The translations under genes were made by a program, and so were the position numbers. The notes under the pieces were generated by a model that was not told where the DNA came from, did not search any database, and was given only the letters and a program-made list of their open reading frames with translations. Shown here piece after piece: positions 36,146-64,000 of a DNA stretch of 64,000 nucleotides (within the stretch, counting starts at the first letter, position 1; each line of letters opens with the position of its first letter). Source of the DNA: Styela clava (Eukaryota > Chordata > Ascidiacea > Stolidobranchia > Styelidae); NCBI RefSeq assembly GCF_964204865.1, contig NC_135263.1, positions 14,305,426-14,369,425 of the forward strand, read 5' to 3'.

Positions 36146-36250
36146 AACAGTTTTCTGGTTTTGAGTTTTTAAGCTAAAACTGAAAAAAATAAATCACATT
36201 ATTTATATTCTGTGCTAAAGTTCGTTCACTAATATTCAACCAATACTGCA

Positions 36251-43299: not shown

Positions 43300-43757
43300 A
43301 TATATATTTCATCTTATCGTATTATATCTTTTATGTCCGCACTTAAAATTTCCCAATTAATTGCTTTTACTTTTATTTTTACGCTTCTTTCTTTCTTTTC
43401 ATATTTTGGATAAAAAAATATATGGTTTTCATACTATAAACACATTGTATTTTTAATTGAATATAACGGACATTATCTATCTCTGGGGCGAAAGACAAAA
43501 TAAGCTACAGAAATGAAGAGTTGACCAGTCTGAATGCCTGAAATTCGATTTTCGAGGAAATCTTGAGTAAGCGGAATTTATGTCAACCATTCGAACGGCT
43601 ACAATTTTTTTCACTTAATTGTCTCTTGTGAGATTCGAACCTGTGGAAGAATTGGTATACAGTAATGGCGAGTAATTGAATATTCGTTGGAAAGAATAGC
43701 GGGTGGAGTGCTCAGATTTCAAAAATTAAATTCGAACGGGATATGTTTGTTTTCTTA

Positions 43758-43829
43758 GCACCAACTGTTAATAAACCGCTTGTACCGAAGCCGTCTGCAA
43801 AGAATGAGTTGTCAAAAAAACCTAGCAAA
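43758..43829 (+). pseudogene. Exon 3 fragment of the array family
   Basis: Reads in one frame PTVNKPLVPKPSAKNELSKK then PSK, matching the middle of exon 3 of the array genes (VNKPLVPKSSAKNELS). It is preceded at 43375-43690 by sequence homologous to the 3' flank of the plus-strand genes. It is therefore the remnant of an older unit at the array edge. It lies where the exon fossil at 52011-52150 lies in the intact unit. Confidence 0.75.
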
Positions 43830-44218
43830 TTATTGAGTCTCCTGTTTAGGTGAATGTTTTAACAAACACAATACTATTACGAAATAACCAGTTTTTTAAA
43901 ATAGTCAAAAGCTCTATTCAGGATTGCATAAACCCCATGACATCTACACAGCAAGCATTGCTATTTTGATTGGAATCTATGACAAAATACCCAATAAGAA
44001 ACTCTACAGACGAATAAAATAACAATTAATAATTTGTATTGATATTTATCACAAAATATGATTAATACCGCAAGTGAAATCTTGCTCTATATTCACACAT
44101 ATTGAGATCATTTTTGATCATTTCAAAAAACACTATACAAAATATCAAAATAACCATAATTCATGAAATAAATAAAAGAAACAAGTAATTGCGTTGTTAC
44201 AATTCTGCTGCGTGCAAA

Positions 44219-45394
44219 TCAAGCACATGGATCATTTTTCACAACGTTGGAGTTAAATCCAATTTGATCCATCATAAAAGAAAGGCGAGAAAAGAATCCA
44301 AAAGAAAATGAAGGTTTTGTTGTTTTCTTAACACAAGGCTTCTTCGTTGGCTTCACGTGAGAAGCAGTTGGTTTCTGGTCCGTTGATATTTCTTTGCTAG
44401 GCTTCGTTGACAACTCATTCTTTGCAGACGACTTCGGTACAAGCGGTTTATTAACACTAGGTCTATGACGATTTTTGTTTGATTCTTTCTTGTTATAAGA
44501 TTTCGTAGTCGGTTTTTTCGAGACGGACTTTTTATTTTGAATTTTCTCATGCTTTTTCTGTTCTACTGATGACTTCAATTTTTTGATGACGTTATTTTTT
44601 GTTGGGTTCTTGCTAGTAATTTTTTTCGTGGATGACTCAGTTGGCGAAGAGTCTGATAAACAATTTTCGAGCGGTCGTGCTTGTTTCTGAATTTTCTTTT
44701 TCGATGAAACTATTTTTGATAATTTATATTCTTCTGGAATGATACCTTGTGAGGTTCCGGCTAAAATATATAAAAAATACAATATAAGTGAATAAATAAA
44801 CATACGAAGCCTATTATTGCACTCAAACAATAAAAGCAGACAAACTATTTCATTGTTTAACTAGCGAAAATTAATAAGCACAAAAAAAATAAATAAAACA
44901 AACCTCCTTTAACTATGCAAGAACATTTATAGATACAACAGTGAGAGTACGCTTTGTTTCCACAATCTTTTGGATCGACGAGTTTCTTGTTACGGAAATC
45001 ATAGCAAGGAATCGTTTTTCTTTCAAATCCTTTTACTGTATACAGAAATACCAAATGTTATAAATAGCAATACCTATTACAAAAAAATCTTCTGATTGTT
45101 CGTCAAAGCAAAGCAAGAAAGACGAAGGTATTATGAGATAATATTATATAAAATTAAATAAAAATGCTTTTTATAATTTTATACGAATTTTCAATATTTT
45201 GAATTGATACAAGAAAGGAATATGTGCTGGCATCGTAATAAAATCTAAAATATATATCAGATAAGATGCAATAAAATCTTGAACTTACCAGGAGCGCATT
45301 GTGTTTTGCTGATTTTATATCTGAGCTGAAAAGGGGTCAGTGATGCTGAAATATCGCAAATCCCGACGACCACGACAAACAGTAATAATTTCAT
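44219..45394 (-). CDS. Secreted Cys-rich/Lys-rich family protein, copy 1
   Basis: Three exons, 45394-45289, 45035-44904 and 44760-44219, give 259 residues. Exon 1 encodes a signal peptide (MKLLLFVVVVGICDISAS) and the start of the mature chain up to TQCAP. Exon 2 encodes a compact cysteine module (PCYDFRNKKLVDPKDCG, then HCCIYKCSC). Exon 3 encodes a long Lys/Ser/Thr tail with a conserved end containing FSFGFFSRLSFMMD and a final cysteine (NDPCA). Ten cysteines are expected in the mature protein. This edge copy is the most diverged minus-strand copy (for example PLENCLSDSSPTE instead of LLENCFPDTSPSE). Sequence before the ATG is TTTTTGCAG/AATTACTTTC, suggesting an intron in the 5' UTR. No known family recognised. 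A secreted, highly basic protein could be structural, adhesive or antimicrobial; this is only a guess. Confidence 0.85.
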
Positions 45395-45601
45395 TTTGTT
45401 AGAAAGTAATTCTGCAAAAATATAACAGGTTTTATTTTACTCTTATGATTAACCAACTTTGAGATGGAAATAGTAGTTGAAACTGTACAATATTCATTTG
45501 TATCATGACTAGAGCAAGCACTTGAATATTTCAGTAACTCTGAACATACTTGTTCGAAATACAATAATCGAATCTATGTTGCGACAAGAAATTGTTTGTA
45601 G

Positions 45602-45741
45602 CTTTTATAGTTTCAGATTGACATTTGTGTTTATTGCCTTGAGCAACGATTGCCCTACATTACTATGTAAATTTGCATGCTTGTTACGTTTCTTAGCCAC
45701 AAATCGTAATTTCATTTACTTTGGTAGCGTCACAGTGACGC
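45602..45741 (-). promoter_or_regulatory. Promoter module of copy 1: TATA box and CGTCA/TGACG palindrome
   Basis: Minus-strand TATAAAAG (45609-45602) lies about 210 bp upstream of the ATG. A palindrome GCGTCACAGTGACGC lies at 45727-45741, followed by ATTTTCTGTAAACC. The same two elements with the same spacing occur at the other fully visible copies. CGTCA/TGACG half sites are those bound by CREB/ATF-type bZIP factors, here with a 3-nt spacer. Confidence 0.6.
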
Positions 45742-46090
45742 ATTTTCTGTAAACCTAAACAAAGTGCTCTTGAACACATACTATTAGTAGACTCAAAGAA
45801 TCCGTAGACTTGAATATTGCTATCGCCGCGATAAATACGTCATATTGAGTTTAAAAATAGTACAAGATTAAATCGTTGGATTAAGCTTTTCATGTAAAAA
45901 TCAGGCTGTAATGGATTAACAAAGATGAAATGAGTCATGAAATTTTGTAAAAGTTTCAAATAACGTCAAGGAGACTTTATTTGCTAGTATTTTTCTGTCT
46001 TTAATCAAATGTAATAAAATAAATTGTCATTAGTTAATGACATCATGCGATATAGCACGACATGGAATATCATTTAAATTAGGATTAGAC

Positions 46091-47486
46091 GTTTGACGGT
46101 CGGGATCAAACAAAACCTAAAAATTCATTTAATTGAGCACTAGTTTCTCTGCATAATAAATCATATGAATATAAACCGCTTTATAGTTATATTAAAGTTA
46201 CATTGTTTATTATTCAAAAAAATCGATTATGGATTAGTAGATGGATTATCCTGGTTCTATGTCGTAATTTTTCTAAATTGATCCACAGTTTTTGTTTTAA
46301 AGTTGCAGTTTAACAATTATATAAAATTTAAAGATCTATTCTAACCGAGATATTAAAAATATATAGAAGTTTAAATTTTTTATATTCAGCATTTCAACCG
46401 AGTATATTTAATAAAATAATTATTGCAGAATTTGTTAGATTCTTGTAAATCAAATTCCAAAAAAATGGTTTCCCATAAACAAAATGTTTATCAGACTCAA
46501 AAGTGAATGTAATTAAAGCTTCGCAGCATTAATAAAATCTAAACTAATATTTCAGCAAAATATGAAACTTTCATTTGTGAGTTTCATTGTGAGAATACAC
46601 AATATATTTATTCATACAATTAAAATATAAAACAACAATTTAAAGAAAAAATACAGAAAACTGAAAGGTGGAAATAGGCTGAATTCACTACTGTCATGAA
46701 TATTAAAGTTAAACACGTATATGCATAAGCCCAACACATTCTCTGCGAAAGCTTGATAAAAATTACGCATTTTTATGACAAAGTGATCAGTATAACTACA
46801 ACGTAAGTTACTTCTATTTTAAACAATTTATACCGCGGTTATTAAGCGATTAAGCGTTATGTTTCAATATATCCATAGTTTAAATAGAAAATGAAAAAGT
46901 AATTGATTTAAAATATAATTCATCATTTGTATGATTATAATATTTATTACGTCAAGAAGTCTTACTTTTCGTGTTCGAATTTTGTTTGCAATTTGCTTCA
47001 AAAATGCGTCGGTCAAAAATCAATTTGTGGGCAATAAATCTGCTTACGATAAATGCGACAAATGTCATTCTATCACCTTGGATTAAATAAAGTAATTATA
47101 TGTGTGAACTTCACATATATAATTATTGCACATGTGTAAATGTAATCGAATATGTGAATTTATATTTATCCTGAGCCATAAGTTCAACACAGTACATTTC
47201 TGCCTATTTCCGAAATTCATTTTTCTTTTTCTTTTTCCCCAACATTATTCTTTTATATTTTAATTGTATAAATATATTGTGTATTATTGGAAAGTCACAA
47301 ATAAAAGTACCATGTTTTGCTATGATATTAGTTTTAAATTTTAGTGATGCTGTAAAGCTTTAATGACATTTACTTTCAGGTGTGATACACATTTATTTAT
47401 GGAGAATCATAGTTAAAGCGGTATATCTTTATAAGAATATTCTTACAAAGACTAGTGCCGAATTAGTTTCATCCCGACCGTCAAAC
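46091..47486. mobile_element. 1.4-kb segment bounded by 16-bp inverted repeats
   Basis: GTTTGACGGTCGGGAT at 46091-46106 is exactly mirrored by ATCCCGACCGTCAAAC at 47471-47486. Flanking words (ACTAGT near both ends) are also mirrored. The interior is AT-rich and non-coding. It may be a non-autonomous DNA element inserted in the left arm of the palindrome, or a product of nested inversion. Confidence 0.45.
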
Positions 47487-47517
47487 CTGTAAACCTCTTT
47501 AAAATTATTATACCTAA

Positions 47518-48560
47518 TTGCACTAAAATGCATGATGTCAATAACTTACTAATGATAAAAAAATATGCTAATCACAATTGAATTGAGAAAGTAAAACGCA
47601 TTTAAGTAAAGTCTTCCCGGCGTTATTTGGGTATTTTACAAAAATCCTAATCTCATTCTATCTCTATGTTTCGTTAAACATAAATGTTAATCCATAACAC
47701 CCCAGACATTACCATCCACTATAGCTTAATTTTTACCTAAAAAGATTAATCCAATTCAAGACAATGTAGTTATGGGGAACGTCTGTACCCAAATATGAAA
47801 TAACCATTCTAAATAGTGTGATCAAGTCAAAATATTTCTGACTAATCCAACTTGCAAAAATAATCTTTCCACTTATCTACAGAGAGACTCCAAAATAGAG
47901 AACTTATAAATTTTATGATTACTTGTTAATTTTCTTATCAACCGACCTTCTGTTTTAGTAAGATTGTACCCAAAAGTTTCACGTTGTGCATGAAAGTTAT
48001 GTTCTCTTTGGAACATGTTCCAAATGGCCATTTTGGCGTTGAAGACACACTTGCATACGTTGCAGCCTTGAGTTTACCAGTCGAATAATGATTGCCTTGA
48101 CCAACTATTGTTTTACAATTCAAATTATGTTTGCATTTCACCAATAGTTTTAAACACAATTTGTAATTGTATTAACATCAGTTGCGTCATAATGACGTAT
48201 TTTCAGTAATCACAAACACACCACATACAAATAAATATCATTAATTAATGCTCCTAAAGAAACACCACACTCGGTGGCGTCATGGTGACGTATTTTCAAT
48301 AATCCCAAACAAATCACACTCAAATAAATATCATTAAATAATGCTCTCAAATAATCGACAGACTTGTCTATTGCTATTGTCGGGATTAAACGTCATAGCG
48401 AGTTTAAAAATAGATCTGAATAAATCCGATAGACTAAGTTTTTTACGTAGAAACTACGCGACAACACAGATAAAATGTGACATGAAAATACATTGCAAAA
48501 CTTTTGGATTTAGTCCATCATTTTATCCTTCTTTGACAATGAATGATTGTTAGATTAACT
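47518..48560. other. Extra promoter-module copies in the centre of the unit
   Basis: About 47518-47700 repeats, in the same orientation, the sequence found at 49650-49810 (GCATGATGTCA(A/T)TAACTTAC, then AAGTCTTC(C/T)). About 48184-48560 repeats the upstream region of copy 1 (45727-45920): a palindrome, ATTTTC(A/T)(G/A)TAA, GAGTTTAAAAATAG, and AAAATG-rich ends. They look like promoters whose genes have been lost. Confidence 0.5.
48184..48291. promoter_or_regulatory. Two orphan CGTCA-N3-TGACG palindromes
   Basis: GCGTCATAATGACGT (48184-48198) and GCGTCATGGTGACGT (48277-48291), each followed by ATTTTCA(G/A)TAATC. No gene start is nearby. Confidence 0.5.
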
Positions 48561-49980
48561 TTAAAAAAATATTGTTGAGGTGATAATGATATGTTTAATA
48601 TGTATTGCCTATTAAGGGACCTATATTTTTTCTTGTATAAAAGAATTATTTTTATAAAGTTTATTTCAATTAGGTAGCAAATCAGAAATTAAGCTTTTTT
48701 GTGATAAAAAAAAATTCTGACAAATTTATTCATATACCTAAATTTAATTATTACACAATAGCGCATGAGATCCTTTTTTTTATAAACATATTATAACAGA
48801 AATCTACTGTGTAGAACGTATGGCTCAGGATAAATATAAATTCTCATATTCGATTACATTTACACACGTGCAATAAATATATAGGTGTATAAGTTCACAC
48901 GTATAAATACAGTTTTAATCCAAGACGATAGAATGACATTTGTCGTATTTATTGTTAAACAGATTTATTGCCCACAGATTGATGACGCATTTTTGAAGCA
49001 AATTGCAAATAAAGTTCGAACACGAAAATTACGAATTTTTGACGTCATAAATATTATAATTATACAAATATTGCATTATATTTTATTAAATTATCCTTTT
49101 TTTCAGTTTTTATTAAAACCATTTATTTACTGAAAGTTATAACTGCGTCATAAATTGTTTAAAAATAGAAGTTACTCCTAATGTACTTATCACATTGTCA
49201 TAAACATTCGTGGTTTTTACTAATGTGCAGGACTAATGCATCAACATGCATCAGATGTTGATGTTCAATTTTGGTTTAATATTTATGATATTGGTGATTT
49301 CAGCCTATTTCCACATTTCCTGTATTTTTTCCTAAGGTTGCTTTTTTGTATTTTAGTTGTATAGATATTTGGGATTTCTGGAAATTCAGAACAATCTTAG
49401 TTTTAGATTTTGATGATGTGGTAAAGCTTTAATGACATTCTAATATCTCGATGTAAATTCTTCATAAATTCATACATTTTAAAACTGCAACTCTAAAATA
49501 TAAAATTGTGGATGAACAAGAGTATCTTTTAATGGATACAGGTATATCAATTCCTAATATTCTGAATTAATTTATTTTAAATAATAAACAATGTAACTTT
49601 GGGTATAACTATAAATTTGTATATGATAATAAAATTCGTTATAATGCATTTAAAAGGCATGATGTCATTAACTTACTAATGATAAACACTATGTTAATCA
49701 CGATTGAATAAAGACAGAAAAATACTACCTAATAAAGTCTTCTTGACGTTATTAGGGAATTTTACTAAAATTCATGTCACATTTTATGTTTTTACATCTT
49801 TGTTAATCCATTGCAACCTGATTTTCACGTGAGAAGCTCAATCTAACTTTTTAATCTTGTTCTATTTTTAAACTCACTATGACGTTTTAATCGTGACAAT
49901 AGCAATAATTAAATCTACGGATTCTTTGAGTCTACTAGTAGTATTTATTCAAGAGGTCTTCGTTTGGGTTTACAGAAAAT

Positions 49981-50128
49981 GCGTCACTATGACGATACCA
50001 AGGTAAATGAAATTACGATTAGTGGCTAGGAAACGTTACAAGAGTGCAAATTTACAAAGTAATATGGGGCAATTGTTGCCCGAGGCCAGAAACACAAATG
50101 TCAATCTGAAACTTTGCATCTATAAAAG
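49981..50128 (+). promoter_or_regulatory. Promoter module of copy 2: palindrome and TATA box
   Basis: GCGTCACTATGACGA at 49981-49995 and TATAAAAG at 50121-50128, about 225 bp before the ATG at 50351. It mirrors the module of copy 1. Confidence 0.6.
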
Positions 50129-50350
50129 CTACAAACATTTTCTTGTTACAACATAATTCGATTATTGTATTTCGAAAAAATATGTTCAGAGCGACTGAAA
50201 TATCTAAGTGCTTGTACTAGCCGTAAATGATAAATTGCACAAATGGGTATTTATAAAGTATTATTCCAATTCTATTTCAACCTTAAATTTGGTTAATCAC
50301 AGCATCAAAATAAAATCTAGTTTATTTTTGCAGAATTACTTTCTAACAAA

Positions 50351-51586
50351 ATGAAATTATTATTCTTTGTCGTGGTCGTCGGGATTTGCGATATTGCAGC
50401 ATCATTGACCCCTTTTCAGCTCAGATATAAAATCAGCAAAACACAATGTGCTCCAGGTAGGTTCAAGATTTTATTGTCTCATATCTGATATATGTTTTAG
50501 ACTATATAAAGATTCCAGCACATATCCTATTCTTTAATTCCCTAAAAAAAAATGCGTTCAAAATTACAAATAGCATTTTTATTTAATTTCATTTAATATT
50601 ATCTTACAATATCACAATGTTTTTTGCTTTGCTTTAACGAATAATCAAGAGAATTCTCGGAAATAGTTATTGTTATTTATAACATATGGTATTTCTGTAT
50701 ACAGTTAGAGGATTTGAAAGAAAAACGATTCCTTGCTATGATTTCCGTAACAAGAAACTCGTCGATCCAAAAGATTGTGGAAACAAAGCGTACTCTCACT
50801 GTTGTATTTATAAATGTTCTTGCATAGTTAAAGGAGGTTTGTTTTATTTTTTTTGTGTTTATTAATTTTCGCTTTTCAAACAATTAAATAGTTTGCCTGG
50901 TTTTATTGTAGCCAAAACACAAGAAAATTCCTCAGTTGGTTTATCAGGACATTTTTGAAATTTTATAGGCACAACACTTGTGATACGTTTGAGTGCGATA
51001 ATACTCTTTGTAACTTTTACTTATTCACTTTTATTTTTTTTTAGCCGGAACCTCACTAGGTATCATTCCAGAAGAATATAAATTATCAAAAATAGTTTCA
51101 TCAAAAAAGAATGTTCAGAAACAAGCAAGACTGCTAGAAAATTGTTTACCAGACGCTTCAACAAGCGAGTCATATCCGAAAAAGATAACCAGCAAGAATC
51201 CAACAGAAAATATTGTCATCAAAAAATTAAAGTCATCAGTAGAACAGAAAAAGCATGAGAAAATGCAAAATAAAAAGACTGTCGGTAAAAAGCCGAAAAC
51301 GAAGTCTGTTAATAAAAAAGAATTAAACAAAAATCGTCAAAGACCAAGTGTTAATGAACCGCTTGTACCGAAGTCGTCTGCAAATAATAAGATTTCAAAG
51401 AAGACCGACAAAGGAAAATCAACAAACCAGAAACCAACTTTTTCTCACGTGAAGCCAACGAAAAAACCATGTGTTACGAAAACAACAAAACCTTCATTTT
51501 CTTTTGGATTCTTTTCTCGACTTTCTTTTATGATGGATCAATTTGGTTTTAACTCCAACGTTGTGAAAAATGATTCCTGTTCTTGA
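50351..51586 (+). CDS. Secreted Cys-rich/Lys-rich family protein, copy 2
   Basis: Exons 50351-50456, 50705-50836 and 51045-51586 have the same lengths (106, 132, 542 nt) as copy 1 and give 259 residues. The signal peptide is MKLLLFFVVVVGICDIAAS. Exon 2 is nearly identical to that of the minus-strand copies (VRGFERKTIPCYDFRNKKLV instead of VKGF...). The tail differs more (LPDASTSESYPKKITSKN; KKTDKGKSTNQKPTFSHVKP) and ends NDSCS. Intron 2 is about 65 bp longer than in the minus copies. Exon 2 uses an unusual GTTTGT donor, as in all copies. The strong conservation of exon 2 against a variable tail suggests that the cysteine module is the functional core, or that gene conversion acts on it. Confidence 0.85.
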
Positions 51587-52010
51587 TTAGCATGCAGCAG
51601 AATTTAAATTTTTTTTATAATATTAAATTATTACAACAACAATTACCCTTAAACTTATTTTCACGCTTCTCTGCATTTTTTTTTGTCTTTTGGATAAAAA
51701 TATAGTGCTTTTATACTATAACCACTTTCTATTGGATATGTCGGGGTTCATCATCAATCACTGCGGGCTAGATAAAAATCAATATTCAGAAGAGAATAGT
51801 TGACCGGTCTGAATGCATGAAATTCGATGGTCAAAAAATAAGCGGAAGTTATGTGAGCCATTCTGCGGCGACAATTTTTTTCACATAATTGTCTCTTGTG
51901 GAATTCGAATCTCAATAAGCAATATTGATACGATTGCGAGTAAATGAATAGTCTGATGACTCTCCGGAAATCTTGAATATTGCTGAACAAATAGTGTTGC
52001 AGTTTCTGGT

Positions 52011-52150
52011 TTCGAAATAAAACCCACCGGTTCTTGCTATAATTTCAGAAGCAAGAAAATCGTTGATTTAAAAACAGAACAAAGAAAGCGTACTTTTGTA
52101 GTTGAAAACCCGCAGTTTGCATCTGCAAAGCCTTGTGTTAAAATCGGCAA
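52011..52150 (+). pseudogene. Fossil of exon 2 and exon 3 of the array family
   Basis: 52030-52095 matches exon 2 (TTCTTGCTATAATTTC, AGCAAGAAAATCGTTGAT, ACAAAGAAAGCGTACT against the living CCTTGCTATGATTTCC, AACAAGAAACTCGTCGAT, ACAAAGCGTACT). Then 52118-52141 resembles exon 3 pieces (TCTGCAAAGCCTTGTGTT). Frames are broken. It is a dead third copy in plus orientation, downstream of copy 2. Confidence 0.65.
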
Positions 52151-52189
52151 AATGGACTCTCGTAGATCAGTTTGATTACCACTCTCAAG

Positions 52190-53015
52190 TAATTTGAAGG
52201 ATAATTACTTATGGATTTTAATCGGTAAGTATGTTGATAGGTATTTGTCTGTCTTTAAGTCTGTCTGTCTGTTAGATGCACGCGATATCTCACGAAAACG
52301 AGATTGAATCTGCTCCAGATTTTGCATGTGCATTCGTCATATTTCGGACCAGGAGTCTATTGATTTTGGGCGAAATATGTCGTATAATTAGCGAGTTATT
52401 AATTAATTAGTGATGGGACACAAGGTCACTATGGAATAAGAGCGCTGTTTTGGGGATCCCCCAACTTTCGATCGATAAGTCTTCGGTCTCTGACCGATAT
52501 TTTCGTTATAGTAGTTATTGCCTCTTGCGTCTATGCTTTTGAATAAGCATTAAACACGTGATTTTCACGTTCTTTTGGCGACAGTGATGGTTTCAAAAAT
52601 CGGGAATCGTTGAGAATTGACTTCACATTGTACAATATAATTCTGATCAAACCATTATTGAAACTACTTTCTATATCTTGATAACAAAATGTTTCCAAAA
52701 CTGTGGTATTTAATTGGGACTGTTTCATATCTGAAATAAATTTTAGTTAATAAAAATTTGAACCTTTAGTTCATTGTTTAATTGTCTAATACTAACATTT
52801 AAATTAACAAATTTAGCGGGTAAATTAGTAGTAATTCTAACAACAACTTTCTACGTTTACCACCTTATTCAATACGAAAAACACATTGAAAATCACAGAG
52901 TCTAAAATACCAAGATTAGTCTAACTACCAACAATCTATGCATTTTTTCGGGTAGCCTACAAAACATTCCCACCTTGATTTCAAATATTCATTCAGACTC
53001 AGGCTAATAATTAAA
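52190..53015. repeat. ~830-bp block present in two spacers, absent in the first
   Basis: The spacer between copies 2 and 3 (and between copies 4 and 5, at 61341-62166) has this extra block. At the array edge the homologous spacer jumps from the exon 3 relic (43829) directly to TTATTGAGTCT, which here lies at about 53018. The block contains a GTCTGTCT tract (52250-52273) and a segment around 52275-52400 (GCACGCGATATCTCACGAAA...) that looks repeat-derived. A 65-codon minus frame at 52531-52728 is kept in both units but is not recognised. Confidence 0.5.
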
Positions 53016-53402
53016 TTATTGAGTCTTATTTCCTGATTTAATATTTTAACCATACACCAGACGACGTAAAACAAAATAACCAATTTTGGAATGTTCTAAA
53101 GCTCTATTCTGAATTGTATAAACACCATGACATCTACACAGTATTGCTATTTTGATTAAAATCTAAGACAAAATATCCAATAAAAAAAGCTGGAAATGAT
53201 TAAAATCACAAAAAATAATTTCTATTAATATTTATTATATTGATTGCCGCAAGTGTTTATTGTTCTATAATCACGCATATGGAGAGCATTGTTGATCAAT
53301 TCAAAAAACACTATTTAAAATATCAAAATAACAATTATATTTAAAATAAAAAATAAATAAAACAACAAATAATTGCGTCGTTATAATTCTGTTTCGTGCA
53401 AA

Positions 53403-54547
53403 TCAGGCACAGGCCTCATTTTTCACAACGTTGGAGTTAAACCCAAATTTATCCATCATAAAAGAAAGTCGAGAAAAGAATCCAAAAGAAAATGAAGGTT
53501 TTGTTGTTTTCGTAACACAAGGCTTCTCTGTTGGATTTACGTGAGGAGCTGTTGGTTTCTGGTTCGTTGATATTTCTTTGCTAGGTTTCTTTGAAAACTC
53601 ATTCTTTGCAGACGACTTCGGTACAAGCGGGTTATTAACAATTGGTCTTTGACGACTTTTGTTTGATTCTTTCTTGTCAAAAGACTTCGTAGTCGTTTTT
53701 TTAGAGACTGTCCTCTTATTTTGCATTTTCTCATGCTTTTTCTGTTCTACTGATGACTTCAATTTTTTGATGACGTTATTTTTTGTTGGGTTCTTGCTAG
53801 TAATTTTTTTCGTGGATGACTCACTTGGCGAAGTGTCTGGAAAACAATTTTCGAGCAGTCGTGCTTGTTTCTGAATTTTCTTTTTCGATGAAACTATTTT
53901 TGATAATTTGTATTCTTCTGGAATGATACCTTGTGAGGTTCCGGCTAAAATATTTAAAAAATACAATATAAGTGAATAAATAAACATACGAAGCCTATTA
54001 TTGCACTCAAACAATAAAAGCAGACAAACTATTTCATTGTTTAACAAGCGAAAATTAATAAACACAAAGAAAAATAAAACAAACCTCCTTTAACTATGCA
54101 AGAACATTTATAGATACAACAGTGAGAGTACGCTTTGTTTCCACAATCTTTTGGATCGACGAGTTTCTTGTTACGGAAATCATAGCAAGGAATCGTTTTT
54201 CTTTCAAATCCTTTTACTGTATACAGAAATACCAAATGTTATAAATAGCAATACCTATTACAAAAAAATCTTCTGATTATTTGTTGAAACAAAGCAAGAA
54301 AGACGAAGGTATTATAAGATAATATTATATGAAATTGAATAAAAATGCTTTTTATAATTTATATACGAATAATACACGAATTTTTAATATTTTGAATTGA
54401 TACGAGAATGAAATATGTGCTGGCATCGTTATTGAACTTACCTGGAGCACATTGTGTTTTGCTGATTTTATATCTGAGCTGAAAAGGGGTGAGTGATGCA
54501 GCAATATTGCAAATCCCAATGACAACGACAAAAAGTAATAATTTCAT
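53403..54547 (-). CDS. Secreted Cys-rich/Lys-rich family protein, copy 3
   Basis: Exons 54547-54442, 54216-54085 and 53944-53403 (106, 132, 542 nt), 259 residues. The signal peptide is MKLLLFVVVIGICNIAAS; the mature chain starts LTPFQLRYKISKTQCAP. The cysteine module is identical at the protein level to copy 1. The tail has DTSPSESSTKKITSKNPTKN and KKTTTKSFDKKESNKSRQRP and ends KNEACA. Copy 5 encodes the same exon 3 protein. Its partner is copy 4, whose start faces it 5 kb away. Confidence 0.87.
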
Positions 54548-54754
54548 TTTGTTAGGAAGTAATTCTGCAAAAATATACCAGATTTTATTTTACTCTTATG
54601 ATTAACCAACTTTGAGATGGGAATAGTAGTTGAAACTGTACAATATTCATTTGTATCATGACTAGAGCAAGCACTTGAATATTTCAGTAGCTCTGAACAT
54701 ACTTGTTCGAAATACAATAATCGAATCTATGTTGCAACAAGAAATTGTTTGTAG

Positions 54755-54894
54755 CTTTTATAGTTTCAGATTGACATTTGTGTTTATTGCCTTGAGCAAC
54801 GATTGCCCTACATTACTATGTAAATTTGCATGCTTGTTACGTTTCTTAGCCACAAATCGTAATTTCATTTACTTTGGTAGCGTCACAGTGACGC
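54755..54894 (-). promoter_or_regulatory. Promoter module of copy 3
   Basis: Minus-strand TATAAAAG (54762-54755) and the palindrome GCGTCACAGTGACGC (54880-54894), as at copy 1. Confidence 0.6.
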
Positions 54895-55243
54895 ATTTTC
54901 TGTAAACCTAAACAAAGTGCTCTTGAACACATACTATTAGTAGACTCAAAGAATCCGTAGACTTGAATATTGCTATCGCCACGATAAATACGTCATATTG
55001 AGTTTAAAAATAGAACAAGATTAAATCGTTGGATTAAGCTTTTCATGTAAAAATCAGGCTGTAATGGATTAACAAAGATGAAATGAGTCATGAAATTTTG
55101 TAAAAGTTTCAAATAACGTCAAGGAGACTTTATTTGCTAGTATTTTTCTGTCTTTAATCAAATGTAATAAAATAAATTGTCATTAGTTAATGACATCATG
55201 CGATATAGCACGACATGGAATATCATTTAAATTAGGATTAGAC

Positions 55244-56640
55244 GTTTGACGGTCGGGATCAAACAAAACCTAAAAATTCATTTAATTGAGCACTAGTTTC
55301 TCTGCACAATAAATCATATGAATATAAACCGCTTTATAGTTATATTAAAGTTACATTGTTTATTATTCAAAAAAAATCGATTATGGATTAGTAGATGGAT
55401 TATCCTGGTTCTATGTCGTAATTTTTTTAAATTGATCCACAGTTTTTGTTTTAAAGTTGCAGTTTAACAATTATATAAAATTTAAAGATCTATTCTAACC
55501 GAGATATTAAAAATATATAAAAGTTTAAATTTTTTATATTCAGCATTTCAACCGAGTATATTTAATAAAATAATTATTGCAGAATTTGTTAGATTCTTGT
55601 AAATCAAATTCCAAAAAAATGGTTTCCCATAAACAAAATGTTTATCAGACTCAAAAGTGAATGTAATTAAAGCTTCGCAGCATTAATAAAATCTAAACTA
55701 ATATTTTAGCAAAATATGAAACTTTCATTTGTGAGTTTCATTGTGAGAATACACAATATATTTCTTCATACAATTAAAATATAAAACAACAATTTAAAGA
55801 AAAAATACAGAAAACGGAAAGGTGGAAATAGGCTGAATTCACTACTGTCATGAATATTAAAGTTAAACACGTATATGCATAAGCCCAACACATTCTCTGC
55901 GAAAGCTTGATAAAAATTACGCATTTTTATGACAAAGTGATCAGTATAACTACATCGTAAGTTACTTCTATTTTAAACAATTTATACCGCGGTTATTAAG
56001 CGATTAAACGTTATGTTTCAATATATCCATAGTTTAAATAGAAAATGAAAAAGTAATTGATTTAAAATATAATTCATCATTTGTATGATTATAATATTTA
56101 TTACGTCAAGAAGTCTTACTTTTCGTGTTCGAATTTTGTTTGCAATTTGCTTCAAAAATGCGTCGGTCAAAAATCAATTTGTGGGCAATAAATCTGCTTA
56201 CGATAAATGCGACAAATGTCATTCTATCACCTTGGATTAAATAAAGTATTTATACGTGTGAACTTCACATATATAATTATTGAACATGTGTAAATGTAAT
56301 CGAATATGTGAATTTATATTTATCCTGAGCCATAAGTTCAACAGAGTACATTTCTGCCTATTTCCGAAATTCATTTTTCTTTTTCTTTTTCCCTAACATT
56401 ATTCTTTTATATTTTAATTGTATAAATATATTGTGTATTATTGGAAAGTCACAAATAAAAGTACCATGTTTTGCTATGATATTAGTTTTAAATTTTAGTG
56501 ATGCTGTAAAGCTTTAATGACATTTACTTTCAGGTGTGATACACATTTATTTATGGAGAATCATAGTTAAAGCGGTATATCTTTATAAGAATATTCTTAC
56601 AAAGACTAGTGCCGAATTAGTTTCATCCCGACCGTCAAAC
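55244..56640. mobile_element. Second copy of the 1.4-kb inverted-repeat segment
   Basis: The same 16-bp inverted repeats at 55244-55259 and 56625-56640 enclose a segment almost identical to 46091-47486. It was duplicated with the unit. Confidence 0.45.
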
Positions 56641-57337
56641 CTGTAAACCTCTTTAAAATTATTATACCTCATTGCACTAAAATGCATGATGTCAATAACT
56701 TACTAATGATAAAAAAATATGCTAATCACAATTGAATTGAGAAAGTAAAACGCATTTAAGTAAAGTCTTCCCGGCGTTATTTGGGTATTTTACAAAAATC
56801 CCAATCTCATTCTATCTCTATGTTTCGTTAAACATAAATGTTAATCCATAACACCCCAGACATTACCATCCACTATAGCTTAATTTTTACCTAAAAAGAT
56901 TAATCCAATTCAAGACAATGTAGTTATGGGGAACGTCTGTACCCAAATATGAAATAACCATTCTAAATAGTGTGATCAAGTCAAAATATTTCTGACTAAT
57001 CGAACTTGCAAAAATAATCTTTCCACTTATCTACAGAGAGACTCCAAAATAGAGAACTTATAAATTTTATGATTACTTGTTAATTTTCTTATCAACCGAC
57101 CTTCTGTTTTAGTAAGATTGTACCCAAAAGTTTCACGTTGTGCATGAAAGTTATGTTCTCTTTGGAACATGTTCCAAATGGCCATTTTGGCGTTGAAGAC
57201 ACACTTGCATACGTTGCAGCCTTGAGTTTACCAGTCGAATAATGATTGCCTTGACCAACTATTGTTTTACAATTCAAATTATGTTTGCATTTCACCAATA
57301 GTTTTAAACACAATTTGTAATTGTATTAACATCAGTT

Positions 57338-57445
57338 GCGTCATAATGACGTATTTTCAGTAATCACAAACACACCACATACAAATAAATATCATTAATT
57401 AATGCTCCTAAAGAAACACCACACTCGGTGGCGTCATGGTGACGT
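57338..57445. promoter_or_regulatory. Orphan palindromes, unit 2
   Basis: GCGTCATAATGACGT (57338-57352) and GCGTCATGGTGACGT (57431-57445), copies of those at 48184 and 48277. Confidence 0.5.
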
Positions 57446-59135
57446 ATTTTCAATAATCCCAAACAAATCACACTCAAATAAATATCATTAAATAATGCTC
57501 TCAAATAATCGACAGACTTGTCTATTGCTATTGTCGGGATTAAACGTCATAGCGAGTTTAAAAATAGATCTGAATAAATCCGATAGACTAAGTTTTTTAC
57601 GTTGGAAATACGCGACAACACAGATAAAATGTGACATGAAAATACATTGCAAAACTTTTGGATTTAGTCCATCATTTTATCCTTCTTTGACAATGAATGA
57701 TTGTTAGATTAACTTTAAAAAAATATTGTTGAGGTGATAATGATATGTTTAATATGTATTGCCTATTAAGGGACCTATATTTTTTCTTGTATAAAAGAAT
57801 TATTTTTATAAAGTTTATTTCAATTAGGTAGCAAATCAGAAATTAAGCTTTTTTGTGATAAAAAAAAATTCTGACAAATTTATTCATATACCTAAATTTA
57901 ATTATTACACAATAGCGCATGAGATCCTTTTTTTTTATAAACATATTATAACAGAAATCTACTGTGTAGAACGTATGGCTCAGGATAAATATAAATTCTC
58001 ATATTCGATTACATTTACACACGTGCAATAAATATATAGGTGTATAAGTTCACACGTATAAATACAGTTTTAATCCAGGACGATAGAATGACATTTGTCG
58101 TATTTATTGTTAAACAGATTTATTGCCCACAGATTGATGACGCATTTTTGAAGCAAATTGCAAATAAAGTTCGAACACGAAAATTACGAATTTTTGACGT
58201 CATAAATATTATAATTATACAAATATTGCATTATATTTTATTAAATTATCCTTTTTTTCAGTTTTTATTAAAACTATTTATTTACTGAAAGTTATAACTG
58301 CGTCATAAATTGTTTAAAAATAGAAGTTACTCCTAATGTACTTATCACATTGTCATAAACATTCGTGGTTTTTACTAATGTGCAGGACTAATGCATCAAC
58401 ATGCATCAGATGTTGATGTTCAATTTTGGTTTAATATTTATGATATTGGTGATTTCAGCCTATTTCCACTTTTCCTGTATTTTTTCCTAAGGTTGCTTTT
58501 TTGTATTTTAGGTGTATAGATATTTGGGATTTCTGGAAACTCAGAATAATCTTAGTTTTAGATTTTGATGATGTGGTAAAGCTTTAATGACATTCTAATA
58601 TCTCGATGTAAATTCTTCATAAATTCATACATTTTAAAACTGCAACTCTAAAATATAAAATTGTGGATGAACAAGAGTATCTTTTAATGGATACAGGTAT
58701 ATCAATTCCTAATATTCTGAATTAATTTATTTTAAATAATAAACAATGTAACTTTGGGTATAACTATAAATTTGTATATGATAATAAAATTCGTTATAAT
58801 GCATTTAAAAGGCATGATGTCATTAACTTACTAATGATAAACACTATGTTAATCACGATTGAATAAAGACAGAAAAATACTACCTAATAAAGTCTTCTTG
58901 ACGTTATTAGGGAATTTTACTAAAATTCATGTCACATTTTATGTTTTTACATCTTTGTTAATCCATTGCAACCTGATTTTCACGTGAGAAGCTCAATCTA
59001 ACTTTTTAATCTTGTTTTATTTTTAAACTCACTATGACGTATTAATCGTGACAATAGCAATAATTAAATCTACGGATTCTTTGAGTCTACTAGTAGTATT
59101 TATTCAAGAGGTCTTCGTTTGGGTTTACAGAAAAT

Positions 59136-59283
59136 GCGTCACTATGACGATACCAAGGTAAATGAAATTACGATTAGTGGCTAAGAAACGTTACAAGAGT
59201 GCAAATTTACAAAGTAATATGGGGCAATTGTTGCCCGAGGCCAGAAACACAAATGTCAATCTGAAACTTTGCATCTATAAAAG
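59136..59283 (+). promoter_or_regulatory. Promoter module of copy 4
   Basis: GCGTCACTATGACGA at 59136-59150 and TATAAAAG at 59276-59283, intact although the gene downstream is broken. Confidence 0.6.
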
Positions 59284-59505
59284 CTACAAACATTTTCTTG
59301 TTACAACATAATTCGATTATTGTATTTCGAAAAAATATGTTCAGAGCGACTGAAATATCTAAGTGCTTGTACTAGCCGTAAATGATAAATTGCACAAATG
59401 GGTATTTATACAGTATTATTCCAATGCTATTTCAACCTTAAATTTGGTTAATCACAGCATCAAAATAAAATCTAGTTTATTTTTACAGAATTACTTTCTA
59501 ACAAA

Positions 59506-60738
59506 ATGAAATTATTATTCTTTGTCGTGGTCGTCGGGATTTGCGATATTGCAGCATCATTGACCCCTTTTCAGCTCAGATATAAAATCAGCAAAACACA
59601 ATGTGCTCCAGGTAGGTTCAAGATTTTATTGTCTCATATCTGATATATGTTTTAGACTATATAAAGATTCCAGCACATATCCTATTCTTTAATTCCCTAA
59701 AAAAAAAAATGCGTTCAAAATTACAAATAGCATTTTTATTTAATTTCATTTAATATTATCTTACAATATCACAATGTTTTTTGCTTTGCTTTAACGAATA
59801 ATCAAGAGAATTCTCGGAAATAGTTATTGTTATTTATAACATATGGTATTTCTGTATACAGTTAGAGGATTTGAAAGAAAAACGATTCCTTGCTATGATT
59901 TCCGTAACAAGAAACTCGTCGATCCAAAAGATTGTGGAAACAAAGCGTACTCTCACTGTTGTATTTATAAATGTTCTTGCATAGTTAAAGGAGGTTTGTT
60001 TTATTTTTTTTGTGTTTATTAATTTTCGCTTTTTAAACAATTAAATAGTTTGCCTGGTTTTATTGTAGCCAAAACACAAGAAAATTCCTCAGTTGGTTTA
60101 TCAGGACATTTTTGAAATTTTATAGGCACAACACTTGTGATACGTTTGAGTGCGATAATACTCTTTGTAACTTTTACTTATTCACTTTTATTTTTTTTTA
60201 GCCGGAACCTCACTAGGTATCATTCCAGAAGAATATAAATTATCAAAAATAGTTTCATCAAAAAAGAATGCTCAGAAACAAGCAAGACTGCTAGAAAATT
60301 GTTTACCAGACGCTTCAACAAGCGAGTCATATCTGAAAAAGATAACCAGCAAGAATCCAACAGAAAATATTGTCATCAAAAAATTAAAGTCATCAGTAGA
60401 ACAGAAAAAGCATGAGAAAATGCAAAATAAAAAGACTGTCGGTAAAAAGCCGAAAACGAAGTAATAAAAAAGAATTAAACAAAAATCGTCAAAGACCAAG
60501 TGTTAATGAACCGCTTGTACCGAAGTCGTCTGCAAATAATAAGATTTCAAAGAAGACCGACAAAGGAAAATCAACAAACCAGAAACCAACTTTTTCTCAC
60601 GTGAAGCCAACGAAAAAACCATGTGTTACGAAAACAACAAAACCTTCATTTTCTTTTGGATTCTTTTCTCGACTTTCTTTTATGATGGATCAATTTGGTT
60701 TTAACTCCAACGTTGTGAAAAATGATTCCTGTTCTTGA
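59506..60738 (+). pseudogene. Family copy 4, tail lost by a 5-nt deletion
   Basis: Exons 59506-59611 and 59862-59993 are intact and exon 3 starts at 60202. Compared with copy 2, five bases are missing after AAAACGAAG, which creates an in-frame TAA at 60462-60464. The reading would stop after 166 residues. It would lose the second half of the Lys-rich tail, the FSFGFFSRLSFMMD motif and the last two cysteines. The lost part (about 60465-60738) is still almost identical to copy 2, so the break is recent. The signal peptide and cysteine module remain, so a shortened secreted product is possible; a sequencing error in the A-rich tract is the other explanation. Confidence 0.8.
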
Positions 60739-61161
60739 TTAGCATGCAGCAGAATTTAAATTTTTTTTATAATATTAAATTATTACAACAACAATTACCC
60801 TTAAACTTATTTTCACGCTTCTCTGCATTTTTTTTGTCTTTTGGATAAAAATATAGTGCTTTTATACTGTAACCACTTTCTATTGGATATGTCGGGGTTC
60901 ATCATCAATCACTGCGGGCTAGATAAAAATCAATATTCAGAAGAGAATAGTTGACCGGTCTGAATGCATGAAATTCGATGGTCAAAAAATAAGCGGAAGT
61001 TATGTGAGCCATTCTGCGGCGACAATTTTTTTCACATAATTGTCTCTTGTGGAATTCGAATCTCAATAAGCAATATTGATACGATTGCGAGTAAATGAAT
61101 AGTCTGATGACTCTCCGGAAATCTTGAATATAGCTGAACAAATAGTGTTGCAGTTTCTGGT

Positions 61162-61301
61162 TTCGAAATAAAACCCACCGGTTCTTGCTATAATTTCAGA
61201 AGCAAGAAAATCGTTGATTTAAAAACAGAACAAAGAAAGCGTACTTTTGTAGTTGAAAACCCGCAGTTTGCATCTGCAAAGCCTTGTGTTAAAATCGGCA
61301 A
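61162..61301 (+). pseudogene. Exon fossil, unit 2
   Basis: Same fossil as 52011-52150, 9151 bp further on, with the same broken frames. The fossil predates the duplication of the unit. Confidence 0.65.
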
Positions 61302-61340
61302 AATGGACTCTCGTAGATCAGTTTGATTACCACTCTCAAG

Positions 61341-62166
61341 TAATTTGAAGGATAATTACTTATGGATTTTAATCGGTAAGTATGTTGATAGGTATTTGTC
61401 TGTCTTTAAGTCTGTCTGTCTGTTAGATGCACGCGATATCTCACGAAAACGAGATTGAATCTGCTCCAGATTTTGCATGTGCATTCGTCATATCTCGGAC
61501 CAAGAGTCTATTGATTTTGGGCGAAATATGTCGTATAATTAGCGAGTTATTAATTAATTAGTGATGGGACACAAGGTCACTATGGAATAAGAGCGCTGTT
61601 TTGGGGATCCCCCAACTTTCGATCGATAAGTCTTCGGTCTCTGACCGATATTTTCGTTATAGTAGTTATTGCCTCTTGCGTTTATGCTTTTGAATAAGCA
61701 TTAAACACGTGATTTTCACGTTCTTTTGGCGACAGTGATGGTTTCAAAAATCGGGAATCGTTGAGAATTGACTTCACATTGTACAATATAATTCTGATCA
61801 AACCATTATTGAAACTACTTTCTATATCTTGATAACAAAATGTTTCCAAAACTGTGGTATTTAATTGGGACTGTTTCATATCTGAAATAAATTTTAGTTA
61901 ATAAAAATTTGAACCTTTAGTTCATTGTTTAATTGTCTAATACTAACATTTAAATTAACAAATTTAGCGGGTAAATTAGTAGTAATTCTAACAACAACTT
62001 TCTACGTTTACCACCTTATTCAATACGAAAAACACATTGAAAATCACAGAGTCTAAAATACCAAGATTAGTCTAACTACCAACAATCTATGCATTTTTTC
62101 GGGTAGCCTACAAAACATTCCCACCTTGATTTCAAATATTCATTCAGACTCAGGCTAATAATTAAA
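61341..62166. repeat. Spacer block, unit 2 copy
   Basis: Near-identical copy of 52190-53015, including the GTCTGTCT tract and the small conserved minus frame (61682-61879). Confidence 0.5.
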
Positions 62167-62553
62167 TTATTGAGTCTTATTTCCTGATTTAATATTTTAA
62201 CCATACACCAGACAACGTAAAACAAAATAACCAATTTTGGAATGTTCTAAAGCTCTATTCTGAATTGTATAAACACCATGACATCTACACAGTATTGCTA
62301 TTTTGATTAAAATCTAAGACAAAATATCCAATAAAAAAAGCTGGAAATGATTAAAATCACAAAAAATAATTTCTATTAATATTTATTATATTGATTGCCG
62401 CAAGTGTTTATTGTTCTATAATCACGCATATGGAGAGCATTGTTGATCAATTCAAAAAACACTATTTAAAATATCAAAATAACAATTATATTTAAAATAA
62501 AAAATAAATAAAACAACAAATAATTGCGTCGTTATAATTCTGTTTCGTGCAAA

Positions 62554-63698
62554 TCAGGCACAGGCCTCATTTTTCACAACGTTGGAGTTAAACCCAAATT
62601 TATCCATCATAAAAGAAAGTCGAGAAAAGAATCCAAAAGAAAATGAAGGTTTTGTTGTTTTCGTAACACAAGGCTTCTCTGTTGGATTTACGTGAGGAGC
62701 TGTTGGTTTCTGGTTCGTTGATATTTCTTTGCTAGGTTTCTTTGAAAACTCATTCTTTGCAGACGACTTCGGTACAAGCGGGTTATTAACAATTGGTCTT
62801 TGACGACTTTTGTTTGATTCTTTCTTGTCAAAAGACTTCGTAGTCGTTTTTTTAGAGACTGTCCTCTTATTTTGCATTTTTTCATGCTTTTTCTGTTCTA
62901 CTGATGACTTCAATTTTTTGATGACGTTATTTTTTGTTGGGTTCTTGCTAGTAATTTTTTTCGTGGATGACTCACTTGGCGAAGTGTCTGGAAAACAATT
63001 TTCGAGCAGTCGTGCTTGTTTCTGAATTTTCTTTTTCGATGAAACTATTTTTGATAATTTGTATTCTTCTGGAATGATACCTTGTGAGGTTCCGGCTAAA
63101 ATATTTAAAAAATACAATATAAGTGAATAAATAAACATACGAAGCCTATTATTGCACTCAAACAATAAAAGCAGACAAACTATTTCATTGTTTAACAAGC
63201 GAAAATTAATAAACACAAAGAAAAATAAAACAAACCTCCTTTAACTATGCAAGAACATTTATAGATACAACAGTGAGAGTACGCTTTGTTTCCACAATCT
63301 TTTGGATCGACGAGTTTCTTGTTACGGAAATCATAGCAAGGAATCGTTTTTCTTTCAAATCCTTTTACTGTATACAGAAATACCAAATGTTATAAATAGC
63401 AATACCTATTACAAAAAAATCTTCTGATTATTTGTTGAAACAAAGCAAGAAAGACGAAGGTATTATAAGATAATATTATATGAAATTGAATAAAAATGCT
63501 TTTTATAATTTATATACGAATAATACACGAATTTTTAATATTTTGAATTGATACGAGAATGAAATATGTGCTGGCATCGTTATTGAACTTACCTGGAGCA
63601 CATTGTGTTTTGCTGATTTTATATCTGAGCTGAAAAGGGGTGAGTGATGCAGCAATATTGCAAATCCCAATGACAACGACAAAAAGTAATAATTTCAT
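62554..63698 (-). CDS. Secreted Cys-rich/Lys-rich family protein, copy 5
   Basis: Exons 63698-63593, 63367-63236 and 63095-62554, 259 residues. The exon 3 protein is the same as in copy 3. The only difference I spotted within the transcribed region is one base near 62880 (T for C in the opposite-strand CTCATGC word), silent in this frame. This means a very recent duplication, active gene conversion, or an assembly that carries the same locus twice. Its plus-strand partner lies beyond the window. Confidence 0.87.
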
Positions 63699-63905
63699 TT
63701 TGTTAGGAAGTAATTCTGCAAAAATATACCAGATTTTATTTTACTCTTATGATTAACCAACTTTGAGATGGGAATAGTAGTTGAAACTGTACAATATTCA
63801 TTTGTATCATGACTAGAGCAAGCACTTGAATATTTCAGTAGCTCTGAACATACTTGTTCGAAATACAATAATCGAATCTATGTTGCAACAAGAAATTGTT
63901 TGTAG

Positions 63906-63913
63906 CTTTTATA
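63906..63913 (-). promoter_or_regulatory. TATA box of copy 5
   Basis: TATAAAAG on the minus strand, about 210 bp upstream of the ATG. The matching palindrome would fall just past the window end. Confidence 0.55.
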
Positions 63914-64000
63914 GTTTCAGATTGACATTTGTGTTTATTGCCTTGAGCAACGATTGCCCTACATTACTATGTAAATTTGCATGCTTGTTACGTTTCTTAG

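What the first reader, a model, noticed from the sequence alone, without database searches (positions are those of the whole stretch)
43375..64000. Alternating head-to-head array of an unrecognised secreted Cys/Lys-rich gene family
Five three-exon copies (start codons at 45394-, 50351+, 54547-, 59506+, 63698-) alternate in strand inside 9.15-kb tandem units. All have identical exon lengths (106, 132, 542 nt). Each encodes a signal peptide, a compact cysteine module and a long basic tail. Such a fixed alternating layout, with facing promoters in a palindromic spacer, is unusual and suggests co-expressed, dosage-driven expansion of a secreted product. I know no family with this architecture.
Basis: partly seen in the sequence, partly recalled or inferred. 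Interest (0 to 1): 0.85.

Follow-up and report, generated by a model that had tools for sequence, protein, structure and literature searches.

The report
Sea-squirt secreted protein gene array
A probable sea-squirt genome carries a recently multiplied row of mirror-image gene pairs for an uncatalogued secreted protein, probably a sticky or structural extracellular protein; the mirror layout is simply what copying an inverted pair of genes gives.

Summary
The array is real and larger than described: 14 alternating genes (7 divergent pairs) over about 60 kb, five in the window. Four of the five window copies have 106/132/542-nt exons; the fifth (59506+) is truncated by a 5-bp deletion shared with a neighbour. 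The genome is probably a tunicate's (GH6 exon). The layout needs no co-regulation: an inverted duplication (arms about 2.8 kb, genes about 87% identical) was amplified as a 9.15-kb tandem unit. Starts lie about 5 kb apart in 6 of 7 pairs, so 'facing promoters' is overstated.

The protein belongs to a wider family with at least 27 exon-2 loci on three chromosomes. In 8 aligned members it has a signal-peptide-like start, a Cys-rich head, a spacer of variable length and charge, and an amphipathic tail between two cysteines; ten cysteines are invariant. Three of 8 members carry one further Cys pair. No Pfam match reached its cut-off, and no significant PDB relative was found. dN/dS is lowest in the head.

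Best guess: an extracellular structural or adhesive protein amplified for dosage. Expression is untested.

The parts
45289..45394 (-). copy A exon 1 (signal-peptide-like start and first conserved Cys), pair 1
44904..45035 (-). copy A exon 2 (six-Cys module)
44219..44760 (-). copy A exon 3 (end of head, spacer, tail between two Cys), intact
50351..50456 (+). copy B exon 1, pair 1
50705..50836 (+). copy B exon 2
51045..51586 (+). copy B exon 3, intact
54442..54547 (-). copy C exon 1, pair 2
54085..54216 (-). copy C exon 2
53403..53944 (-). copy C exon 3, intact
59506..59611 (+). copy D exon 1, pair 2
59862..59993 (+). copy D exon 2
60202..60464 (+). copy D exon 3 as read: truncated by a 5-bp deletion that the + copy at C18:14374082 shares
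63593..63698 (-). copy E exon 1 (pair 3; its + partner lies outside the window)
63236..63367 (-). copy E exon 2
62554..63095 (-). copy E exon 3, intact
44197..47202 (-). minus arm of the inverted duplication (gene plus upstream DNA)
48797..51607 (+). plus arm of the inverted duplication
47203..48796 (.). spacer centre: not mirror-symmetric, but holds further copies of the promoter-side element (about 70% identical to those next to the genes)
45728..45740 (.). CGTCA-N3-TGACG palindrome, centre 340 bp upstream of the copy A start; such an element precedes 14 of 14 array genes
49982..49994 (.). CGTCA-N3-TGACG palindrome, centre 363 bp upstream of the copy B start
48185..48290 (.). two further CGTCA-N3-TGACG palindromes in the spacer centre (48185-48197 and 48278-48290)
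43760..43819 (+). isolated exon-3 fragment of a + copy (87% over 60 bp): worn left edge of the array

Best explanation
This is a lineage-restricted secreted gene family in a tunicate (probably an ascidian). A 3-exon gene was duplicated head-to-head with about 2.8 kb of sequence. The divergent pair was then copied in tandem by unequal exchange, giving 7 pairs in about 60 kb; the + genes of pairs 1-5 are nearly identical. The product is exported and built as a disulfide-locked head (8 Cys, or 10 with the extra pair), a disordered polyelectrolyte spacer that varies widely in length and charge (S/T/K-rich to K-P-T repeats), and a short amphipathic tail between two cysteines. The most likely job is an abundant extracellular matrix, adhesive or coat protein, in which the two cystine ends link or anchor while the cationic spacer binds acidic glycans; copy number raises output. 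Shown here: gene anatomy, array structure, the family, the conserved cysteines and dN/dS below 1. Inferred: secretion (from the look of the N-terminus only), disulfide pairing, disorder of the spacer, glycan binding, dosage, host clade, and that the family is lineage-restricted (no other animal genome was searched).
For: Array structure and identities. Inverted arms. Tree: + and - genes separate with support 100, so the inversion is older than the tandem copying. At least 27 exon-2 loci. Ten invariant Cys in 8 of 8 aligned members, and an extra Cys pair present in 3 of 8 and absent in 5 of 8: repeated with three corrected exon joins. dN/dS (24 pairs of intact + and - copies): head 0.12, spacer 0.31, tail 0.35. 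Spacer +17 to +36 net charge per 100 residues in 8 of 10 members measured; one K/P-rich spacer gives sub-cut-off matches to HC2 and Extensin_1. Acceptor-like AG 17 nt before the ATG in 14 of 14 array genes. Host: GH6 exon (PMC7464555, passages). Precedents: silkmoth chorion pairs (PMC4639761, passages) and Oikopleura oikosins (PMC3390340, passages).
Against: No RNA or protein evidence at all: expression, tissue and secretion are untested. Near-neutral spacers in the two C14 members measured argue against charge being essential for the whole family. Three of 14 copies are truncated, which weakens strong dosage selection. Copy number in one assembly may include false (allelic) duplication: 14349304-14369005 matches 14376797-14396483 at 98.8%. 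Folding gave no confident model. The branching of - genes does not follow that of + genes (P1- is the outlier; P6- and P7- group with P4- at support 59), so the copying history is not a simple series.
Confidence: 0.5

Rival explanations
1. Cationic immune effector: an exported, disulfide-stabilised antimicrobial protein of blood or gut cells, whose basic spacer and amphipathic tail attack or agglutinate microbes.
For: Net charge of the mature protein +34 and pI 9.98 for one array copy; conserved tail, weakly helical in a single-sequence model (residues 154-166 of exon 3); arrays and truncated copies are usual in defence families (own knowledge). Ascidian Cys-rich antimicrobial peptides are in print (PMC7024374, PMC13208793; seen in the search listing only).
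Against: The head, not the cationic part, is what selection holds most (dN/dS 0.12 against 0.31). Neutral spacers in the two C14 members measured. dN/dS is below 1 in all regions tested, so no sign of fast adaptive change.
Confidence: 0.2
2. Gamete or egg-coat family (reproductive protein) amplified in tandem, as in silkmoth chorion, with divergent pairs under shared control.
For: Close parallel in layout to silkmoth chorion pairs (PMC4639761, passages); all 14 array genes carry the same palindrome at -340 to -363, though these copies are not independent.
Against: Chorion pairs share one common promoter region; here the starts are about 5 kb apart in 6 of 7 pairs and each gene of the pair examined has its own upstream block. 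No tissue data.
Confidence: 0.15
3. Mostly non-functional recent repeat: a segmental duplication hot spot, or an assembly false duplication, whose copies have no special role.
For: Three of 14 copies truncated; 98.8% match over 19.7 kb between two parts of the array.
Against: dN/dS below 1 between + and - copies (0.29 overall); ten Cys invariant across paralogues that are 27-53% identical to the array protein. Pair 6 has a spacer about 3 kb shorter, and the + genes of pairs 6 and 7 differ from those of pairs 1-5 by about 4-6%, which makes plain allelic duplicates unlikely for them; the - genes of pairs 6 and 7 are closer (about 1-3% from those of pairs 2-5).
Confidence: 0.12

Closest known systems
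Silkmoth chorion locus, A/B gene pairs
   Same: Tandemly repeated, divergently oriented pairs of related secreted-protein genes with some pseudogenes (PMC4639761, passages).
   Different: Chorion pairs share a common promoter region; here about 5 kb separates the starts in 6 of 7 pairs, and the two genes of a pair are 87% identical copies of one gene rather than A and B types. The proteins were not compared directly; no chorion family came up in Pfam.
Oikosins, house proteins of Oikopleura
   Same: Tunicate secreted proteins, about half with no known domain, enlarged by gene duplication (PMC3390340, passages).
   Different: Oikosin paralogues are described as dispersed through the genome, not kept in one homogenised array; no sequence comparison was made here.
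Vanabins of ascidians
   Same: Cys-rich ascidian proteins; VanabinX has a charged tail (PMC9486056, passages).
   Different: 16-18 cysteines in the core against 10-12 in the mature proteins here; VanabinX tail is acidic; Vanabin2 (1VFI, in the PDB) was not returned for this family.
Fibronectin type I module
   Same: The only PDB profile hit, with a loose C-x-C ... G-x-G likeness (3EJH, E = 5.7 and 5.9).
   Different: Not significant, partial alignment only.

Membership tests
[quoted passage not shown]
   10 invariant Cys, 12 in three of 8 members, signal-peptide Cys not counted; the definition is from PMC9486056 passages
Any Pfam family | match above the curated cut-off | tested here: not met
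   head domain: 0 families for the first alignment; with three corrected joins one member matched DUF7772 at E 0.15. Full proteins, 8 members at E up to 0.1: HC2, Extensin_1 and BORCS8, one member each; all below cut-off: HC2 33.5 of 40 bits, Extensin_1 24.5 of 105, BORCS8 15.7 of 25
Extensin-like / HC2-like | homology beyond shared K/P richness | tested here: not met
   both matches lie in the K/P-rich spacer (residues 150-289) of one member of 8 and are below cut-off
Fibronectin type I module | significant profile similarity | tested here: not met
   E = 5.7 and 5.9, partial alignment
Chorion-type divergent-pair array | tandem divergent pairs of secreted-protein genes | tested here: met
   7 pairs; secretion inferred from the N-terminus only
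Chorion-type divergent-pair array | one common promoter region per pair | tested here: inconclusive
   start-to-start distance 4957-4960 bp in 5 of 7 pairs, 1914 in one, 5228 in one speaks against it, but transcription starts were not mapped
Secreted protein | cleaved signal peptide | not testable with these tools
   hydrophobic N-terminus in the 8 aligned members by eye; no signal-peptide program on hand

The most novel reading that the evidence does not exclude
An undescribed tunicate protein family in which a conserved disulfide head and a conserved amphipathic tail between two cysteines are joined by a freely evolving polyelectrolyte spacer (near neutral to +36 charges per 100 residues): a natural series of two-headed extracellular cross-linkers. 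Its mirror-image clusters (C18 and, less regular, C14) would share a palindromic CGTCA-N3-TGACG control element that is about 8 times over-represented in this genome.
Probability: 0.2. Interest if true: 0.65.

Novelty: new variant of a known kind. Interest (0 to 1): 0.42.

Why it matters
About half of the known house proteins of one tunicate have no known relatives (PMC3390340), and such secreted families are hard to study. This locus gives one with much of its history readable: an inverted duplication, tandem growth, homogenisation and decay of some copies. The conserved head and tail against a variable spacer make clear structure-function tests possible, and the paired layout lets one ask whether array orientation affects expression at all.

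Tried and rejected
Nemertean origin (first guess from genome size): dropped after the contig lengths and the GH6 exon. Mitochondrial COX1 as a clade marker: no match in the assembly. Globin as a clade marker: not completed.

Ciona-type spliced leader as the explanation of the acceptor-like site before the ATG: no such array found. Matches with up to 2 mismatches were 43 forward and 117 reverse against 27 and 36 in the reversed control; many of the listed matches lie in a tandem tRNA array on C3 (the list was cut). A diverged leader would be missed, so trans-splicing versus a non-coding 5' exon stays open.

Thrombospondin type 1 and inhibitor-knot likeness of the cysteine pattern: my own recollection only; no profile support. 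Structure of the exon-2 module and of exon 3: mean pLDDT 55.7 and 62.2, not used further. RNA genes in the window: none at Rfam thresholds. One script had a faulty pattern and printed nothing.

An error of mine, mended: in the first alignments (A1, A2) the exon 1/exon 2 join of three of the 8 proteins (C19, C14, 12.837 Mb) was typed one residue too long. correct this; the invariant columns are unchanged. One search used the uncorrected C14 head, and the Cys numbers of those three are one too high after the join. The joins of the older C18 members were chosen by hand to fit the array's; script 35 also offered other joins.

Papers: the searches listed no paper whose title or shown abstract describes this family. 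That covers an open-licence library and listings only, so it does not show that the family is unpublished.
Full report
OBSERVATION. The five starts, the alternation, the exon borders and the 9.15-kb unit are in the sequence as described. One claim fails: copy 59506+ does not have the 542-nt exon 3, because a 5-bp deletion, shared with the + copy at C18:14374082, ends the frame early. In the whole genome (window = G000:C18:14305426-14369425) the array holds 14 genes in strict alternation between 14349.6 and 14409.2 kb. Ten of 14 have 106/132/542-nt exons, one has 545 in exon 3 and three are truncated (14364931+, 14374082+, 14402752-). A lone exon-3 fragment marks the left edge at window 43760-43819.

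HOST. A glycosyl hydrolase family 6 exon occurs on C9 (E 1.5e-6, 35.4 bits against a cut-off of 27). [quoted passage not shown] Among contigs C1 to C23, 15 are 18.7-32.7 Mb long and add up to about 361 of 376.6 Mb (lengths); the other contigs were not looked at, so a further chromosome is possible. TTAGGG-type repeats stand at some contig starts. Tunicate, probably ascidian, is the best reading; it rests mainly on the one GH6 exon, and the species is not established.

HOW THE LAYOUT AROSE. Within a unit the two genes lie head to head with starts 4957-4960 bp apart in pairs 1-5, 1914 in pair 6 and 5228 in pair 7 (from the starts). In pair 1 the plus and minus arms match over about 2.8 kb, gene plus upstream DNA, at 68-95% in bins; the centre falls to 51-58%. 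In the gene tree + copies and - copies separate with support 100, and + against - genes are 86-88% identical. The + genes of pairs 1-5 are 99.4-100% identical to each other, with those of pairs 6 and 7 outside (94-96%). The - genes tell a less simple story: pairs 2-5 are 98-100% identical, P1- is the outlier (about 94%), and P6- and P7- are 97-99% identical to those of pairs 2-5 and group with P4- at support 59 only. So: inverted duplication first, tandem copying later, with exchange between units. Alternation is then inherited and is no evidence for co-regulation. The stretches 14349304-14369005 and 14376797-14396483 match at 98.8% over 19.7 kb; without reads, a false duplication of part of the array cannot be excluded.

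THE FAMILY. A protein search of the genome found the exon-2 module at 27 loci, a lower bound by the tool's own statement: 14 in the array, 5 at C18:12.81-12.85 Mb (plus an exon-3 fragment), 7 at C14:20.26-20.37 Mb (plus a weak exon-1 match, E 0.08), 1 at C19:4.67 Mb. In the C14 cluster the three left loci are on the minus strand and the four right loci on the plus strand. I aligned 8 full proteins (2 array, 4 older C18, 1 C19, 1 C14); the 12.832-Mb member was left out because its exon 1 was not placed at the time (a candidate showed up), and the other C14 members were not spliced. Ten cysteines are invariant in 8 of 8: C33, C46, C60, C68, C69, C73, C75, C113 in the head and C222, C258 around the tail (the same after correction of three exon joins). 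Three of 8 (C19, C14, 12.837 Mb) have two extra cysteines, one before the first and one four residues after the second; the other five have neither, so these two probably bond to each other (inference; the three may share one origin, so this may be a single event). In one further C14 locus (L045) the second head cysteine is replaced. The spacer between C113 and C222 runs from 65 to 198 residues and from +1.5 to +36 net charges per 100 residues in ten members measured. The tail keeps [FI]-x-x-[RK]-[LMF] and G-[FLM] between its cysteines in the 10 sequences aligned.

SELECTION. Between the 4 + and 6 - copies of 259 residues (24 pairs; the 260-residue copy and three truncated copies dropped), dN/dS is 0.12 for the head up to residue 79, 0.31 for residues 80-229, 0.35 for the tail and 0.29 overall (Nei-Gojobori). 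The 24 pairs are not independent. dS itself is uneven (0.10 head, 0.36 spacer), which suggests gene conversion in exons 1-2 or codon effects, so the ratios are rough.

KNOWN RELATIVES. Head domain against Pfam: nothing in the first run; DUF7772 at E 0.15 in one of 8 members after correction. Full proteins: HC2, Extensin_1 and BORCS8, one member each of 8, all below the curated cut-offs, the first two within the K/P-rich spacer. PDB: none for the array protein; one non-significant fibronectin hit for the head profile (E 5.7 and 5.9). AlphaFold on window sequence only: exon 2, pLDDT 55.7; exon 3, 62.2, with a helix in the tail at modest confidence. Neither was used for fold searches. No other animal genome could be searched, so the spread of the family is unknown.

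CONTROL ELEMENTS. The palindrome CGTCA-N3-TGACG occurs 8 times in the window (0.03 expected). It precedes 14 of 14 array genes, with its centre 340-348 bp (- genes) or 362-363 bp (+ genes) upstream of the start, and sits twice more in the spacer centre of 6 of 7 pairs. Because the array is duplicated these are not independent. It also lies about 410 bp upstream of the 12.826-Mb gene and 160 and 187 bp upstream of 2 of 4 C14 genes examined (of 7 loci); it was not found in the 562 bp held upstream of the C19 gene, nor within 10 kb upstream of the three other older C18 genes whose starts were placed. Four exact copies fall in the 50-kb older cluster (0.12 expected from the genome rate, P about 1e-5), only one of them shortly in front of a placed start. 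In the genome it occurs 938 times against 111 for the reversed control. It is therefore a common palindrome of this genome, possibly a transcription-factor site or part of a repeat, and not specific to this family.

5' ENDS. An acceptor-like T-rich AG stands 17 nt before the ATG in 14 of 14 array genes, and acceptor-like AGs stand near the ATG in several paralogues by eye. Either a non-coding 5' exon or spliced-leader addition, known in Ciona (PMC7986045, passages), would explain it. A Ciona-like leader was not found as an array.

FUNCTION. No expression data exist here. From anatomy (signal-peptide-like start, Cys-rich head, low-complexity K/P/T/S spacer, tail between two cysteines, recent copy growth) I favour an extracellular structural or adhesive protein, at about 0.5, over an immune effector (0.2), a gamete coat protein (0.15) and a functionless expansion (0.12). 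The parallels are silkmoth chorion for layout (PMC4639761) and Oikopleura house proteins for kind (PMC3390340); both are analogies, not homology.

VERDICT. Real, wider than reported, an uncatalogued protein family as far as Pfam and the PDB go, with an ordinary origin for the striking layout.

Noticed in passing
G000:C3:24847563-24961794 (L082 = 24912601-24914600): Dozens of tandem repeat units, commonly about 0.5 to 2.4 kb apart; the 2-kb stretch read holds six Rfam tRNA matches. Found while looking for a spliced leader.
   Followed up: partly
starts of several contigs (among them L048, L049, L054, L062, L064, L065; other strand in L051, L058, L059, L063): A repeat of about 50 bp (with TTTTTGACGGTTTTTCACTGTTTTTAAGCGTTTTAGCAGGGTTATTG) occupies many contig starts, while others start with CCCTAA repeats.
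   Followed up: no
G000:C14:20265000-20375000: The C14 paralogue cluster is also mirror-like: three exon-2 loci on the minus strand at left, four on the plus strand at right; the 20332-kb locus (L045) has lost a head Cys.
   Followed up: partly
whole genome: CGTCA-N3-TGACG is 8.4 times more frequent than its reversed control (938 against 111).
   Followed up: partly
window 46465-46700 / 47183-47410 (inverted), 47524-47661 / 49651-49787 (direct), 45923-46114 / 47463-47663 (inverted): The spacer holds further internal repeats, 68-78% identical, besides the main arms.
   Followed up: no
window 12217-13689 (-), 15443-16999 (+), 35567-36193 (-): Neighbouring reading frames: RWD-RING protein, LRR-Ig protein and an mTERF-like exon (the last just below cut-off).
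   Followed up: no
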